Positions 1 to 36,659 of a stretch of DNA of 64,000 nt are shown one piece after another. The DNA lies in assembly GCF_900188485.1 (NCBI RefSeq), contig NZ_FZPH01000001.1:1-64000 (forward strand). The letters are read 5' to 3'. Within the stretch, counting starts at the first letter, position 1; each line of letters begins with the position of its first letter. Both the position numbers and the translations under genes were made by a program. A model generated the notes under the pieces. It made no database searches. It saw only the letters and a program-made list of their open reading frames with translations, and was not told where the DNA came from. This DNA comes from Asanoa hainanensis (lineage in GTDB: Bacteria > Actinomycetota > Actinomycetes > Mycobacteriales > Micromonosporaceae).

Positions 1-264
1 CGCGGGATCCGGCTACTACGACCCTCGTACCGCAACCGGACCCCACGACCGGACGAACACCTGCTCAAACCCGTCCGGCAACTCATCGAGTCAGTCAACG
101 ACACCCTCAAGGGCCAACTCGACCTCGAACTACACGGCGGACGCACCATCGAAGGTGTCGGTGCCCGCATCGCTCAACGACTACTCGCGATGACCGCCGC
201 CATCTGGCACAACCGCGCAACCGGCCAGCCCGTGACCAGGTCACTCATCGCCTACGACCACTGA
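1..264 (+). CDS. IS982-family transposase, C-terminal part (truncated by window edge)
   Basis: An open frame runs from the first base and stops at 262-264, giving about 87 residues. The tail includes an N-D-T-L-K-G-Q stretch, a GGRT turn, an AIWHN segment and a terminal RSLIAYDH. This matches my recollection of IS982-type DDE transposase C-termini in actinomycetes. The start lies outside the window. Only about 20 bp separate its stop from the ppk2 stop on the other strand, so the right end of the element must lie close to or within the ppk2 3' end. The family assignment rests on recognition of the tail only. Confidence 0.7.
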   Translation, partial: RGIRLLRPSYRNRTPRPDEHLLKPVRQLIESVNDTLKGQLDLELHGGRTIEGVGARIAQRLLAMTAAIWHNRATGQPVTRSLIAYDH

Positions 265-10167: not shown

Positions 10168-10998
10168 ATGCCGTACGTGACCGTGGGTCAGGAGAACACC
10201 GAGCCGGTCAAGATCTACTACGAGGATCACGGCTCGGGCCCGCCCGTCGTGCTCATCCACGGCTACCCGCTCAGCGGGCAGTCCTGGGAGAAGATCGTCA
10301 GCCCGTTGCGGGGCAAGAACCGGATCATCACGTACGACCGGCGCGGTTTCGGCAAATCCTCGCAACCGGGCAGCGGGTACGACTACGACACGTTCACCGC
10401 GGACTTCAACATCCTGATGGAGACGCTGGACCTGCGTGACGCGGTGCTGGTCGGGCACTCGATGGGCACCGGCGAGATCACCCGTTACCTCGGCCAGTAC
10501 GGCTCGGCCCGGGTCTCGAAGGGCGTGCTGCTCAGCCCGCTGGCGCCGTTCCTGCTCAAGACCGGCGACAACCCCGAGGGCGTGGACGGGTCGGTCTTCG
10601 AAGGCATCAAGCAGGCCTGCGCGGCCGACCGGCCACTGTGGATCAAACAGTTCTTCGACCTGTTCTTCAACGTCAAGGACACCATGGGCAAGCAGCTCAG
10701 CCAGGAGGCCTGGAACGCGCACTTCAACGTCGGCATCACAGCGTCGCCGATCGGCACGTACGACTGTGTCGACTCGTGGCTGACCGACTTCCGCCAGGAC
10801 GTGGTCGGGATCGACGTGCCGATGCTGGTGGTGCAGGGCACGGCCGACCAGGTGCTGCCGTTCGCGTCGACCGGCAAGCGGCTCCCGCCGCTGGTCAAGG
10901 ACCTCAAGCTGGTCGCGATCGACGGCGCGCCGCATAGTATCCCGTGGACCCACGCGGCCGAGTGCGATGCCGCGATCAAGGACTTCATGGCGGCCTAA
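10168..10998 (+). CDS. Alpha/beta hydrolase, non-heme chloroperoxidase-like
   Basis: This 276-aa alpha/beta hydrolase has the nucleophile elbow GHSMG with S98, an oxyanion HGYP loop at 31-34, an acid in the GTADQVLP segment and a histidine in GAPHSIPW. It resembles the bromoperoxidase/chloroperoxidase subgroup; physiologically an esterase is as likely. The ATG at 10168 follows a purine-rich GACGGGGG segment. An inverted repeat CCAAAA-GGGGA-TTTTGG (11005-11021) lies just after the stop and may end transcription. Confidence 0.9.
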   Translation: MPYVTVGQENTEPVKIYYEDHGSGPPVVLIHGYPLSGQSWEKIVSPLRGKNRIITYDRRGFGKSSQPGSGYDYDTFTADFNILMETLDLRDAVLVGHSMGTGEITRYLGQYGSARVSKGVLLSPLAPFLLKTGDNPEGVDGSVFEGIKQACAADRPLWIKQFFDLFFNVKDTMGKQLSQEAWNAHFNVGITASPIGTYDCVDSWLTDFRQDVVGIDVPMLVVQGTADQVLPFASTGKRLPPLVKDLKLVAIDGAPHSIPWTHAAECDAAIKDFMAA

Positions 10999-33136: not shown

Positions 33137-34189
33137 CTAACCGATCTTGCCTCGGTACGCCTTGCCGATGTGGTAGACGTTCTGATGGGTCATGCCGTAT
33201 TCAAGGGCGAGAGCGGTTCCCTTTTCGCCTGCGGCCAGCCTCCGGGCGATCTCGTGGTTCCGCGCTAGCCGTGCCGGCGGCACGTAGCCGCGGCGGTGCT
33301 TCCTCGGCGCTGGCGGCTTAATCGGATGTGGCGAACGTGGCGCGCGCTTCACACGGGGCCGACGCGCAAGGACGAGGGCGAGTTGTTGGCTGCGGCGAGC
33401 ACCCAGCACACCGGAGAAATGTTGGATGATCTCGGACGCCCTTGCCACGCCGATCGTCGTCGACCATATTGGCGACCATCCGGCTCGGCGTGGTGGTTGA
33501 GATCGAACGGTTCCGCCCATCATCTCGGCCGCTCGACGGACCACTGCCTCATCGGTCATGTGCAGGCCCAACGACTGGAAGCTGAAACATCCTTCGCCCT
33601 CCAACAGGCCGCCCAACCATGCCCATTCCACGTCGTTGGCGACCGCCGCAGCTATCTCGGCTTCGATCGCGGCTATTTTCGAGGCCTGGGCCAAGAGATC
33701 CTCGATCGGTCGAACATCTCCTCGGAGGAGAGCGTTGACCGATTTCGGCTTGACTCCATACCGCTCTGCCAACTCAGCCCGGTGAACGCCGGCAGCCTTG
33801 AGAACCCACATCTCGGCGACCTCGGTCGCGTAGGGCTTCCGTTTCGCGTCCAGCTCGCGCTTTGACAGGGCCCTGTCGATCTGAGCCTGGCGGCGTGGGC
33901 TCAAGCCCGGTCGAAGCGCATTCATCAGCTCAACGGCACGACGTCCCCGTACGCGCCACGTCAAGACGTCTTTGTGCCCCGGCATTCGCGCCCGCATGGG
34001 CCAACATGCCGTAGCCTCGACGATCTCCGCGCTGCGCTCGACCACGTCGAAGTCGGTCATCGATAGGACGACGGCAGCCTGGTTGGGGGAAGACGGTGAT
34101 GGTGCCAGGAAGGCACCCTCTCCTTCCAGAAGCCCGGTGAGGTAGGCCAACGTGGTCGGTCGCCGCAACGAGGTAAAACCGGAGAGCAC
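33137..34189 (-). CDS. Free-standing LAGLIDADG-type homing endonuclease
   Basis: The protein of up to 350 aa contains two LAGLIDADG-class helices: LAYLTGLLEGEG (14-25) and WAWLGGLLEGEG (189-200). Each ends in the acidic residue expected to bind metal. Two copies in one chain fit a monomeric enzyme. Helix-turn-helix-like segments lie at about 136-158 (AELAERYGVKPKSVNALL) and 311-343 (GTALALEYGMTHQNVYHIG). GC content is clearly lower than in neighbours, suggesting transfer. It is not inside an intein or a recognisable intron. It is divergent from the tRNA-like element and rtcB. The GTG start at 34189 is uncertain; TTG codons a few residues later would also keep both motifs. Confidence 0.82.
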   Translation of the reverse strand: MLSGFTSLRRPTTLAYLTGLLEGEGAFLAPSPSSPNQAAVVLSMTDFDVVERSAEIVEATACWPMRARMPGHKDVLTWRVRGRRAVELMNALRPGLSPRRQAQIDRALSKRELDAKRKPYATEVAEMWVLKAAGVHRAELAERYGVKPKSVNALLRGDVRPIEDLLAQASKIAAIEAEIAAAVANDVEWAWLGGLLEGEGCFSFQSLGLHMTDEAVVRRAAEMMGGTVRSQPPRRAGWSPIWSTTIGVARASEIIQHFSGVLGARRSQQLALVLARRPRVKRAPRSPHPIKPPAPRKHRRGYVPPARLARNHEIARRLAAGEKGTALALEYGMTHQNVYHIGKAYRGKIG

Positions 34190-34516
34190 AAGAAATTCTA
34201 TGACCTGGCCTCACGTTGAGGTTGCCCGCTCGATCCCAACGAAGCGTCAAATATCGTTGCCAGCAGCGCCGGTCAGTCCTACCGTTGGTTCGCAGAGGAC
34301 GCGAGCGAGGAGACACCGAAGATGCGGCAACCCAGCCTGAACGCGACACGGTGTTTGCCGTGTGCGGTCGTGGGTCTGCCCTCCGGTGGCCCAGCCGCAG
34401 GCGCCGTGTCGCCAGCTTTCGCAGCACGACACTTGCGCTAACCCCGCCGCATTTGCGCTTGAGCTGTCTGGCCGCCACTAGGCGGCAGGCGGCGGCAACA
34501 TTTCGGCACCCCTCCT
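34190..34516. other. Low-GC intergenic stretch between endonuclease and tRNA-like element
   Basis: About 330 bp with no supported gene. It contains small stem-loops, ACACGG-TGTTTG-CCGTGT (34346-34363) and GCCGCC-ACTA-GGCGGC (34471-34486). The second is followed by AACATTT and could terminate or process upstream RNA before the tRNA-like element. Promoters for the endonuclease (-) and the tRNA-rtcB unit (+) must lie here, but no clear -35/-10 pair stands out. Confidence 0.4.
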
Positions 34517-34601
34517 GGCCTGATCGCGTCGCCGGTGCGGCGGCCGGTCCGCAAAACCGGATCCCGGAAACGGGCGAGGGATTCGACTTCCCGTCAGGCC
34601 T
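34517..34601 (+). tRNA. SelC-like tRNA with GCA anticodon and 8/4 acceptor branch
   Basis: An 85-nt cloverleaf. Acceptor GGCCTGAT (34517-34524) pairs with GTCAGGCC (34593-34600), eight pairs including one T-G. D stem CGTCGC/GCGGCG has six pairs and a 4-nt CGGT loop (34527-34542); E. coli selenocysteine tRNA has CGTCTC-CGGT-GAGGCG. Anticodon stem CCGGT/ACCGG (34544-34560) carries loop CCGCAAA, anticodon GCA (34551-34553). The variable arm is CCCG-GAAA-CGGG. T arm GGGA-TTCGACT-TCCC (34578-34592) has a canonical loop. T601 is the discriminator (U73, as in Cys tRNA); CCA is not encoded. Position 33 is C instead of U, so it may be non-decoding. It ends 25 nt before rtcB. Confidence 0.65.
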
Positions 34602-34615
34602 CAAGGATATCCACT

Positions 34616-34623
34616 AAGGAGAG
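34616..34623 (+). promoter_or_regulatory. rtcB ribosome binding site
   Basis: AAGGAGAG lies 3-5 nt before ATG 34627 and 15 nt after the tRNA-like element. Transcription of rtcB from further upstream would therefore include the tRNA-like RNA in its leader. Confidence 0.8.
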
Positions 34624-34626
34624 ACG

Positions 34627-35826
34627 ATGAGTTACACGCTGCTGCCGGGCACGCGGGCGCCGGTTCGGGTCTGGACCGACCCGGCGACGATCGAGGCCGA
34701 CGCGAGCCGGCAGCTTCGCAACATCGGCACGCTGCCGTGGGTCGACGGGGTCGCGGTCATGCCTGACGTGCACTACGGCAAGGGTGCGACGGTCGGGTCC
34801 GTCATCGCGATGCGGCAGGCGCTCGCGCCCGCGGCGGTCGGGGTCGATATCGGCTGCGGCATGTCCGCGGTGCGCACGAACCTGACCGACGCCGACCTGC
34901 CCGACGACCTCGGGCCGCTGCGCCGGGCGATCGAGTCGGCCATCCCGGTCGGGTTCAACGCCCACGACGAGCCGGTCAACCCGCACCGGATCCACGGCCT
35001 GCCGACCGCCGGCTGGGCCGAGTTCTGGAAGGGCTTCGGCACGCTCACCGCGGACGTCGGCGGCCTGGAGACGCGGGCGTCGCGGCAGCTCGGCTCGCTC
35101 GGCGGCGGCAACCACTTCATCGAGGTCTGCGTCGAGCAGGGCGGCCCGGACGCCGGGCGGGTCTGGCTGATGCTGCACTCGGGCTCGCGCAACATCGGCA
35201 AGGAGCTCGCGGAGCGGCACATCCGGGTCGCCCGCGGGCTGCCGCACAACGCCGACCTGCCGGACCGGGACCTCGCGGTGTTCGTGTCCGGCACGCCGGA
35301 GATGGACGCGTACCGCCGGGACCTGAGCTGGGCGCAGCAGTACGCGGCGCGCAACCGGGCCATCATGCTCGCGCTGCTCTGCCGGGTGCTGCGGGAGGCG
35401 GTCGCGCACGTCCGCTACGACGAGCCGATCTCGTGCCACCACAACTACGTCGCGGAGGAGACCTACGACGGCGTCGACCTGCTGGTGACCCGCAAGGGCG
35501 CGATCCGGGCGGGCCGGGGTGACCTGGGCATCATCCCGGGCTCGATGGGCACCGGCTCGTACATCGTGCGCGGCCTCGGCAACGACGACGCCTACAACTC
35601 GGCGTCGCACGGTGCCGGTCGGCGGATGTCGCGGACGAAGGCGAAGAAGACGTTCACGGTGGACGACCTGGCGCAGCAGACGGCCGGCGTCGAGTGCCGC
35701 AAGGACGCGGGCGTCGTCGACGAGATCCCGGGCGCCTACAAGGACCTCGGTGCGGTCATCGCCGCACAGGCCGACCTGGTCGAAGTCGTGGCCCACCTGA
35801 AGCAGGTGGTCTGCGTAAAGGGCTGA
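34627..35826 (+). CDS. rtcB: RtcB family RNA ligase
   Basis: The 399-aa RNA ligase joins 2',3'-cyclic phosphate (or 3'-phosphate) to 5'-OH RNA ends using GTP and Mn. Family motifs are present: MPDVHYGKG (45-53), GVDIGCGM (72-79), GGGNHF (159-164), HSGSRNIG (184-191), CHHN (270-273) and SHGAGR (327-332). H328 in the last is the expected guanylylation site. The length is that of the shorter bacterial RtcB group. No archease or rtcA gene is adjacent. The immediately preceding tRNA-like RNA suggests a role in tRNA repair or sensing of broken tRNA. Confidence 0.95.
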   Translation: MSYTLLPGTRAPVRVWTDPATIEADASRQLRNIGTLPWVDGVAVMPDVHYGKGATVGSVIAMRQALAPAAVGVDIGCGMSAVRTNLTDADLPDDLGPLRRAIESAIPVGFNAHDEPVNPHRIHGLPTAGWAEFWKGFGTLTADVGGLETRASRQLGSLGGGNHFIEVCVEQGGPDAGRVWLMLHSGSRNIGKELAERHIRVARGLPHNADLPDRDLAVFVSGTPEMDAYRRDLSWAQQYAARNRAIMLALLCRVLREAVAHVRYDEPISCHHNYVAEETYDGVDLLVTRKGAIRAGRGDLGIIPGSMGTGSYIVRGLGNDDAYNSASHGAGRRMSRTKAKKTFTVDDLAQQTAGVECRKDAGVVDEIPGAYKDLGAVIAAQADLVEVVAHLKQVVCVKG

Positions 35827-35879: not shown

Positions 35880-36659
35880 ATGGAGCACCACGACGAGACC
35901 CTGCGGGCGTACGTCCGGCGGATGAAGGCCGACCCGCACGCGATCGCGGTCATCGCGGTGGGTTCGGTCGCGCGCGGCACGGAACGGCCCGACTCGGACG
36001 TCGACGTGTATCTGGTCGTGCCCGACGACGTGTTCGACGCGGCCCTCGCCGCCAACCGGGTGATCTTCGTCGAGCGCACCGACGCGACGTATCCGGGCGG
36101 CTATGTCGACGTCAAGCTTGCCACGGTCCCGTTCCTGCGGGCTGCCGCCGAGCGTGGGGACGATCCGGTTCGCGCGTCGTTCGAAGGTGCCCGGGTCGCC
36201 TGGGCCCGCGCCGGTCACGACATCGCCGGGCTGGTCGCGGCGATCCCCGTGCTTCCGTCGGCGGTCTGGGAGAGCCGAGCCGTCTCGTTCATCTCCCAGG
36301 CGCGCCTGCACGGCACCGACTTCCTCCGCGAGGCCGTCGCCCTGGACAACACGTTCCTGCTGCATCACGCCGCTGTGCACACGGTCGCCGCCGGCGGGCG
36401 GGCCCTGCTCGCGCTGAACCGCAGGCTCTATCCCGGGCCGAAGGACCTCGACGCCACACTCGCCGCGCTGGACCGCGTGCCGGACGGGTACGGCGACCTC
36501 GCCCGGCGGCTCCTGAAAGAGCCCAGCAGGGAAGCCGCCGACGCGTACGTCGACGCGTTGGAGGCCTTCCACGACTGGCCCGTGGATCGCGTGACGAGTG
36601 ACTCGATCTTCATCCGGGACACGGAGCTCGCCTGGTTCACCGCCGCGCGCGGCGAGTAA
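35880..36659 (+). CDS. Nucleotidyltransferase-fold protein (GSx10DxD)
   Basis: The 259-aa protein carries the polymerase-beta-type signature: GSVARGTERPDSDVDVYLV around residues 27-45 (G-S, then D-x-D), with a further acidic/Lys strand DVKL. A helical C-terminal half follows, as in aminoglycoside-type or MNT-like nucleotidyltransferases. The acceptor is unknown. Its place 53 bp after rtcB, next to a tRNA-like RNA, makes RNA-end modification a possibility, but it is not a CCA-adding enzyme by motif. The 3' end overlaps the convergent mycosin gene by 23 bp. Confidence 0.82.
   Translation: MEHHDETLRAYVRRMKADPHAIAVIAVGSVARGTERPDSDVDVYLVVPDDVFDAALAANRVIFVERTDATYPGGYVDVKLATVPFLRAAAERGDDPVRASFEGARVAWARAGHDIAGLVAAIPVLPSAVWESRAVSFISQARLHGTDFLREAVALDNTFLLHHAAVHTVAAGGRALLALNRRLYPGPKDLDATLAALDRVPDGYGDLARRLLKEPSREAADAYVDALEAFHDWPVDRVTSDSIFIRDTELAWFTAARGE

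What the first reader, a model, noticed from the sequence alone, without database searches (positions are those of the whole stretch)
34517..34601. Selenocysteine-tRNA-like RNA with Cys anticodon in the rtcB leader
Seen: a cloverleaf with an 8-bp acceptor stem, a 4-bp T stem (AGGGA/TCCCG would give a mismatch at five pairs), a canonical TTCGACT T loop, and a 6-bp D stem with a 4-nt loop that differs from the E. coli selC D arm at about two positions. It also has a long variable arm, anticodon GCA and U73. Known: tRNA-Sec has extended acceptor and D stems, and 8/4 'allo-tRNAs' exist in some bacteria. Inference: a selC-derived tRNA moved to Cys identity (GCA plus U73), or, because position 33 is C rather than U, a non-decoding tRNA mimic that serves as ligase substrate, sensor or leader switch for rtcB.
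Basis: partly seen in the sequence, partly recalled or inferred. Interest (0 to 1): 0.93.

Follow-up and report, generated by a model that had tools for sequence, protein, structure and literature searches.

The report
Backup cysteine tRNA beside RNA-repair ligase
Just ahead of an RNA-repair ligase gene, this soil actinomycete carries a second, oddly built cysteine tRNA whose closest relatives sit in large clusters of spare tRNA genes, so it is probably an emergency spare made together with the repair enzyme when translation is damaged.

Summary
34517-34601 folds as an 85-nt tRNA: 8-bp acceptor, 4-bp T stem, 6-bp D stem with 4-nt loop, variable hairpin, anticodon GCA, U73, C33. Rfam calls it tRNA-Sec (48.8 bits); ARAGORN misses it. 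It is not selC: the genome has a UCA selC and an ordinary tRNA-Cys elsewhere. A corrected covariance model finds the class in 38 of 250 family genomes at 62.6 bits or more (8 genera), all GCA/U73, with double changes in 19 of 23 pairs. Of these, 34 lie in tRNA arrays, 3 (all Asanoa) before rtcB, 1 alone. A tRNA, of five isotypes, stands within 150 nt upstream of rtcB in 9 of the 30 best-matching loci (0.03 expected). Many arrays and rtcB genes share a WblC-like promoter, leader ORF and hairpin. Best reading: a Sec-shaped accessory tRNA-Cys co-expressed with RtcB as stress-time replacement. Descent from selC is not supported. A non-decoding role remains possible: all three rtcB-leader copies carry C33. 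No expression data were available.

The parts
34248..34285 (+). WblC/WhiB7-like promoter: CAAATA + 3 nt + TTGCCA (-35) + 17 nt + TACCGT (-10)
   Evidence: Same layout upstream of other rtcB genes and of tRNA arrays; published WblC consensus GAAAWY, 3 bp upstream of TKGMNN, 16-19 bp, TANNNT (PMC7157823, passages); CAAATA fits GAAAWY at 4 of 6. Not found by the sigma-70 scan.
34322..34441 (+). leader ORF, 39 codons, MRQPSLNATRCLPCAVVGLPSGGPAAGAVSPAFAARHLR, with SD GAGGAG at 34307-34312
   Evidence: Read; leader ORFs, starts picked by eye, in all 6 Asanoa rtcB upstreams, 1-3 Cys codons each
34463..34493 (+). G+C-rich hairpin at the place of a terminator; no T-run follows it in this genome
   Evidence: Fold; T-run criterion met in 5 of 6 Asanoa rtcB leaders but not in this one; terminator scan finds none here
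34517..34601 (+). Sec-architecture tRNA-Cys (8/4 acceptor/T, 6/4 D arm, anticodon GCA at 34551-34553, C33 at 34550, U73 at 34601)
34616..34623 (+). Shine-Dalgarno sequence of rtcB (AAGGAGAG)
   Evidence: read directly
34627..35826 (+). rtcB, RNA ligase, 399 aa
   Evidence: PF01139, 1.2e-122

Best explanation
It is an accessory tRNA-Cys with the architecture of a selenocysteine tRNA, of the kind found in the spare-tRNA arrays of its family, here placed in the rtcB operon of three Asanoa genomes. Proposed working: translation stress or tRNA cleavage raises WblC/WhiB7, which activates the promoter at about 34250; ribosomes stalling in the leader ORF favour read-through into the operon; the tRNA is cut out by RNase P and RNase Z, given CCA, charged by CysRS through GCA and U73, and replaces cleaved tRNA-Cys while RtcB reseals broken tRNAs. 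Shown here: fold, conservation, Cys identity elements, array kinship, rtcB linkage, similar promoter/leader layout. Inferred: transcription, processing, charging, decoding, stress control.
For: Covariation; 38 of 38 copies keep GCA and U73; 34 of 38 lie in tRNA arrays. Among the 51 loci mapped (arrays were sought through their HNH gene), Rsr matches lie at six arrays (L048, L059, L060, L061, L077, L081; TROVE confirmed by Pfam for L048 only) and RtcB inside three (L063, partial; L077; L091). A tRNA stands within 150 nt upstream of rtcB in 9 of the 30 best-matching rtcB loci, five isotypes, against 0.026 expected from tRNA density. TTGNNN-16..18-TANNNT occurs in 21 of 30 rtcB and 17 of 19 array upstreams (shuffle means 0.5 and 1.1), and at the sites of the stricter form (16 rtcB, 14 array) the block before the -35 is A+T rich. 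An ORF followed by a hairpin and T-rich tract was found in 19 of 19 arrays (no shuffle control). The genome has an AT-hook WhiB protein (RGRPRK, L208). Precedents: the Anabaena trn tRNA operon and rtcB share the repressor TrcR and respond to translation stress (PMC10272220, passages); the WblC regulon includes six tRNAs (PMC7157823, passages); tRNA cleavage by VapC5 induces whiB7 (PMC10287673, passages).
Against: C33 in all three rtcB-leader copies, where U33 is nearly universal in working tRNAs (recalled; 46 of 47 housekeeping tRNAs here). The hairpin in this window lacks the T-run. Three of 6 Asanoa rtcB leaders have no such RNA. In genus g34 (L021-L027) the rtcB leader ORF is not followed by a convincing terminator, and 9 of 30 rtcB upstreams show no such promoter pair. 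The stricter promoter pattern was written after seeing the sequences, and the loci are related. No RNA data.
Confidence: 0.55

Rival explanations
1. A tRNA that lost decoding after moving to rtcB and now serves the ligase: a cleavable decoy or substrate, or a 5' leader element whose processing or damage tunes rtcB expression.
For: All 3 rtcB-leader copies have C33, while the Asanoa siamensis array copy has U33. The RNA lies 23-28 nt from the rtcB start codon in all three.
Against: C33 or G33 also occurs in array copies (L121, L138) and in 35 of 417 ARAGORN-called tRNAs of 21 array loci, 10 of 12 for Val-GAC. Other isotypes stand next to rtcB in other genera. The stems, GCA and U73 are kept.
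Confidence: 0.22
2. A relic or hitchhiker: an array tRNA that landed next to rtcB by homing-endonuclease or recombination activity and has no present function.
For: Only 3 of 6 Asanoa genomes carry it at rtcB; a LAGLIDADG-like ORF (weak, E 0.075, below cut-off) lies just upstream in this window; no Cys tRNA was found in the own array.
Against: Paired changes between the three copies keep the stems (second acceptor pair and anticodon stem); tRNAs of five isotypes next to rtcB.
Confidence: 0.15
3. A true selenocysteine tRNA reading Cys codons, as described for some tRNA-Sec with sense anticodons (PMC7609411, passage).
For: Rfam tRNA-Sec match above cut-off; Sec-like D arm and acceptor branch; the genome has a selC.
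Against: U73 in 38 of 38 copies, while the own selC continues GCCA, that is G73; a normal UCA selC exists; 34 of 38 copies sit in arrays of ordinary tRNAs.
Confidence: 0.03

Closest known systems
selC* tRNA-Cys (Mukai et al. 2017, not held; as told in review PMC7609411, passages seen)
   Same: 8/4 acceptor/T branch, Sec-like architecture, GCA anticodon, U73
   Different: No A51a bulge in this RNA, 5-bp anticodon stem, actinobacterial host (the review names Firmicutes, Thermodesulfobacteria, Nitrospirae, Proteobacteria), tRNA-array and rtcB context, short variable region in many relatives
Bacterial tRNA-Sec (Rfam RF01852)
   Same: 6-bp D stem with 4-nt loop, 8-bp acceptor, variable hairpin in the window copy; score above cut-off
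   Different: Anticodon GCA, U73, 4-bp T stem; separate from local selC genes in the tree
Actinobacterial tRNA arrays with HNH genes (Morgado and Vicente 2018, PMC5966550; abstract, first fifth of the text and passages seen)
   Same: Dense accessory tRNA clusters with HNH endonuclease
   Different: This copy is alone in front of rtcB; 'RtcB' and 'Ro60' occur 0 times in that main text
Anabaena trn operon and rtcB under TrcR (PMC10272220, passages seen)
   Same: Silent spare-tRNA operon and rtcB answer translation stress together
   Different: Regulated by an RHH repressor; tRNA operon on a megaplasmid, rtcB on the chromosome
WblC/WhiB7 regulon (PMC7157823 and PMC6282962, passages seen)
   Same: Promoter layout; regulon includes tRNAs and translation factors
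   Different: Control by WblC only predicted here; 'RtcB' occurs 0 times in PMC7157823

Membership tests
selC* tRNA-Cys | 8-bp acceptor with 4-bp T stem | tested here: met
   Pair 8-80 formed in 9 of 9 (UG, CG, UA), fifth T-stem pair fails in 4 of 9
selC* tRNA-Cys | U73 and GCA (or UCA) anticodon | tested here: met
   Window and 38 of 38 aligned copies
selC* tRNA-Cys | A51a bulge in the T stem | tested here: not met
   Window T stem is continuous; among the 9 of alignment A4 only the G005 copy can be read with such a bulge
selC* tRNA-Cys | longer anticodon stem and variable arm | tested here: inconclusive
   Variable hairpin present in the window; sixth anticodon pair is G.A, not a pair; variable region short in many relatives
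selC* tRNA-Cys | neighbouring selB* or cysS* (only some groups) | tested here: not met
   Downstream genes are rtcB, a nucleotidyltransferase-domain gene and a subtilase gene; not searched genome-wide
tRNA-Sec | UCA anticodon, G73 (recalled) | tested here: not met
   GCA and U73
tRNA-Sec | Rfam RF01852 above gathering score | tested here: met
   48.8 against 47; not specific: an array tRNA-Ser also passes (L065, 47.3 bits)
allo-tRNA | 8/4 or 9/3 branch with Ser/His identity (identity recalled) | tested here: not met
   Branch met, identity elements are Cys
tRNA array member | lies in a dense tRNA cluster | tested here: not met
   No other tRNA within 1.5 kb of the window copy; met for 34 of 38 relatives
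WblC/WhiB7 regulon | AT-rich motif 3 bp upstream of -35, 16-19 bp spacer, TANNNT | tested here: inconclusive
   Layout present; binding not testable here
functional decoding tRNA | U33 | tested here: not met
   C33; U33 in 33 of the 38 copies
functional decoding tRNA | mature, CCA-ended, charged RNA | not testable with these tools
   needs RNA work

The most novel reading that the evidence does not exclude
This family holds a translation-repair regulon: a WblC-driven, ribosome-attenuated operon set comprising a broad spare tRNA set, RtcB and Rsr. The array leader ORFs use unusually many different amino acids (mean 17.4 of 20 in about 41 codons; 14.2 expected), so loss of almost any tRNA would stall a ribosome there and open the operon. 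The window RNA would be its cysteine member, remodelled to a Sec-like shape and an altered anticodon loop that evades tRNA-cutting toxins.
Probability: 0.3. Interest if true: 0.88.

Novelty: new variant of a known kind. Interest (0 to 1): 0.7.

Why it matters
It would link three things usually studied apart: tRNA arrays of unclear use, RtcB repair, and antibiotic-responsive (WblC) control, with a testable trigger in the leader ORF. It also extends Sec-shaped cysteine tRNAs to actinomycetes, where a standard tRNA finder misses many: of the 38 copies ARAGORN called 19 and missed 19, the window copy among them.

Tried and rejected
Model R1 was built with misregistered D and anticodon arms, my error; its tallies (5 of 250, 1 of 394) are undercounts and are not used. 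R2 replaced it. In one search one row (L010) was aligned in the wrong orientation; one search is the sound alignment.

Rejected: chance fold (covariation); decayed selC (own UCA selC is clearly different). Not found: a phage or plasmid source (no match over 80% of the query for the window RNA; no match for two relatives, one against phages and one against plasmids; 0 viral contigs for one exact pattern); a sigma-70-type promoter or terminator by generic scan.

Unsettled: origin of the Sec-like form. Tree support for the 8/4 Cys group is 50. The Rfam tRNA-Sec model was preferred to the tRNA model for 5 of the 6 array relatives, but it also took an array tRNA-Ser, so it is no proof of descent. 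Anticodon-loop changes: 248 of 405 array-locus tRNAs differ from the loop of this genome's housekeeping isoacceptor, but arrays of other genomes were compared with this genome's set only, and a few tRNAs outside arrays are among them; in the own array locus 10 of 21 differ.

Limits of counts: arrays were reached through the HNH gene; the 19 array leaders are those loci with both an HNH match and a Trp tRNA; leader start codons were picked by eye; the 30 rtcB loci are the best-scoring ones, which found matches in 108 of 121 genomes. Five array Cys RNAs of alignment A4 came from a filter that required acceptor, anticodon and T-stem pairing, so for those stems A4 is biased; the D stem was not filtered. 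A6 is fitted to the R2 structure; in it acceptor pairs 5 and 6 fail in 5 and 4 of 35 distinct rows. Of 42 R2 family matches, three under 60 bits and one second copy in G119 were left out of the 38.

Full report
Observation. The 85 nt at 34517-34601 form the cloverleaf described: 8-bp acceptor (last pair U.G), 6-bp D stem with loop CGGT, 5-bp anticodon stem, hairpin variable arm, 4-bp T stem, anticodon GCA, U73, C33. Rfam assigns tRNA-Sec at 48.8 bits, cut-off 47, E 9e-07. ARAGORN sees nothing in the window. rtcB follows after 25 nt.

Not the genome's selC or housekeeping tRNA-Cys. The genome has a selC with UCA next to Glu, Asp and Phe tRNAs (70.1 bits) and a canonical tRNA-Cys between Gly and Val tRNAs (L052). 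A tRNA-family search lists 66 places, which do not include the window RNA.

Relatives. The genus is taken to be Asanoa: an exact pattern search named A. siamensis and A. ishikariensis, whose contig lengths equal those of G004 and G003. A DNA search found the RNA in 4 of 6 genomes of the genus, own included. In A. siamensis it stands at the end of an array, with U33; in G000, G003 and G005 it precedes rtcB, with C33. With model R2, 41 of 250 family genomes match at E <= 1e-6. I kept the 38 genomes with a copy of 62.6 bits or more, in 8 genera. The canonical tRNA-Cys of this genome scores 39.8 and its selC 30.0. In the class sample 10 of 394 genomes match, own included; the other nine score 45.9-60 bits. 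Of the eight of these that I read, five are ordinary tRNA-Cys, one is a selC, and two (L124, L127) are unusual Cys RNAs next to other tRNAs.

Structure. On the MAFFT alignment of 9 sequences, 99.1% of cells pair and 14 of 27 pairs change on both sides, 0 of 500 shuffles as good. The 8/4 form fits better than 7/5: pair 8-80 is formed in 9 of 9, the alternative fifth T-stem pair in 5 of 9. On 38 sequences (35 distinct), 98.6% of cells pair and 19 of 23 pairs change on both sides. All 38 have GCA and U73; 33 have U33, four C33, one G33.

Context. 34 of 38 lie among at least 4 same-strand tRNAs within 1.5 kb, 3 in the rtcB leader, 1 alone. The own genome's array (contig C40) has 21 tRNAs on one strand, an HNH gene and a TROVE/Rsr gene, but no Cys. 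RtcB lies inside arrays L063 (partial), L077 and L091. In the 30 best-matching rtcB loci, 9 have a tRNA on the same strand within 150 nt upstream (Cys 3, Glu 3, Arg, Gly and Gln 1 each) and 4 downstream; 0.026 upstream were expected from tRNA density. The loci are related, but five isotypes suggest repeated events.

Shared control layout. Upstream of the first array tRNA in 19 arrays I find a promoter-like pair in 17, an ORF of 31-44 codons followed by a hairpin and T-rich tract in 19, with a Shine-Dalgarno match of at least 5 of 6 before that ORF in 12. Upstream of rtcB the promoter-like pair occurs in 21 of 30. I read a leader ORF in 18 of the 30 rtcB loci; a hairpin with T-run follows it in 5 of 6 Asanoa and in four of five g4 loci (L028, L032, L033, L035, not L029), but in genus g34 (L021-L027) nothing convincing does. 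Markov shuffles gave means of 1.1 (arrays) and 0.5 (rtcB) for the promoter pair; a stricter form, written after seeing the data, occurs in 13 arrays and 16 rtcB loci; at its sites the block before the -35 is 69-74% A+T in regions of 30-37%. This resembles the published WblC promoter, GAAAWY 3 bp upstream of TKGMNN (PMC7157823). In the window: CAAATA-TCG-TTGCCA-17-TACCGT. An AT-hook WhiB protein is encoded in the genome, with one such pair 467 nt upstream of its open frame. Against this: the window's own hairpin has no T-run.

Leader peptides. Array leaders hold a mean of 17.4 different amino acids; 14.2 were expected (2000 simulations, maximum 15.5; background from four window proteins only). 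One (L071) holds all 20. Asanoa rtcB leaders carry 1-3 Cys codons each, also in the three genomes without the tRNA there, so Cys codons are not tied to the tRNA.

Anticodon loops. Of 417 ARAGORN-called tRNAs in 21 array loci, 35 lack U33, 10 of them among 12 Val-GAC; of 47 housekeeping tRNAs one does. Thus C33 in the window RNA fits a habit of array tRNAs and need not mean decay. Phage tRNAs with changed anticodon loops are proposed to escape tRNA-cutting nucleases (PMC10264068, passages); the same is possible here but untested.

Origin. In an ML tree the 20 8/4 Cys RNAs group together (support 50), apart from 15 selC genes (support 96); 17 of 20 score closest to canonical tRNA-Cys, 3 to selC, two of these from rtcB leaders. 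The score is affected by variable-arm length. Descent from selC is therefore unproven.

Judgement. A Sec-shaped accessory tRNA-Cys, kin to array tRNAs, sits in an rtcB operon whose control layout resembles that of the arrays. The spare-tRNA reading is the most economical (0.55); a non-decoding role with RtcB is the main rival (0.22). The closest published RNA, selC* tRNA-Cys, shares the 8/4 branch and Cys identity but not the A51a bulge or setting (PMC7609411). Searches for RtcB with tRNASec and actinobacteria (none), tRNA-like terms (2 papers), tRNA array, WhiB7/WblC (20 of 24 listed) and leader peptide terms (20 of 299 and 15 of 511 listed) showed no title or abstract start describing this arrangement; longer lists were cut and most subscription papers are not held.

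Noticed in passing
L048:7153-12648 (own genome, contig C40): tRNA array of 21 same-strand tRNAs with an HNH gene (PF14279/PF01844) near its head and a TROVE/Rsr gene directly after it; several other family genomes show the same plan.
   Followed up: partly
L071 upstream of the Trp tRNA at 10330-10403 (minus strand): Array leader ORF of 40 codons that uses all 20 amino acids, followed by a hairpin and T-rich tract.
   Followed up: partly
window 33137-34189, minus strand: ORF with two LAGLIDADG-like motifs by eye (Pfam LAGLIDADG_3 only at E 0.075, below cut-off); a similar short ORF lies inside the own tRNA array (L048:10173-10655, E 0.013, below cut-off).
   Followed up: partly
window 35883-36656: Nucleotidyltransferase-domain gene (PF01909) directly after rtcB; in G003 a relative lies about 3 kb downstream of rtcB.
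   Followed up: no
L032, within about 80 nt upstream of rtcB: What looks by eye like a shortened, decayed tRNA-Glu at the place where sister genomes have an intact tRNA-Glu before rtcB.
   Followed up: no
L059:10828-13551: Rsr gene of G003 split into two matches about 1.2 kb apart, with an ARAGORN tRNA-Arg call inside the first part.
   Followed up: no
L053:2749-2822 (contig C31, 64748, just outside the window): A tRNA-Arg(TCG) with C33, the single one of the 47 housekeeping tRNAs read that lacks U33.
   Followed up: no
L022-L027 upstream of rtcB: In genus g34 the rtcB leader ORF is a conserved 13-codon peptide such as MRPLAKPAAARRG.
   Followed up: no
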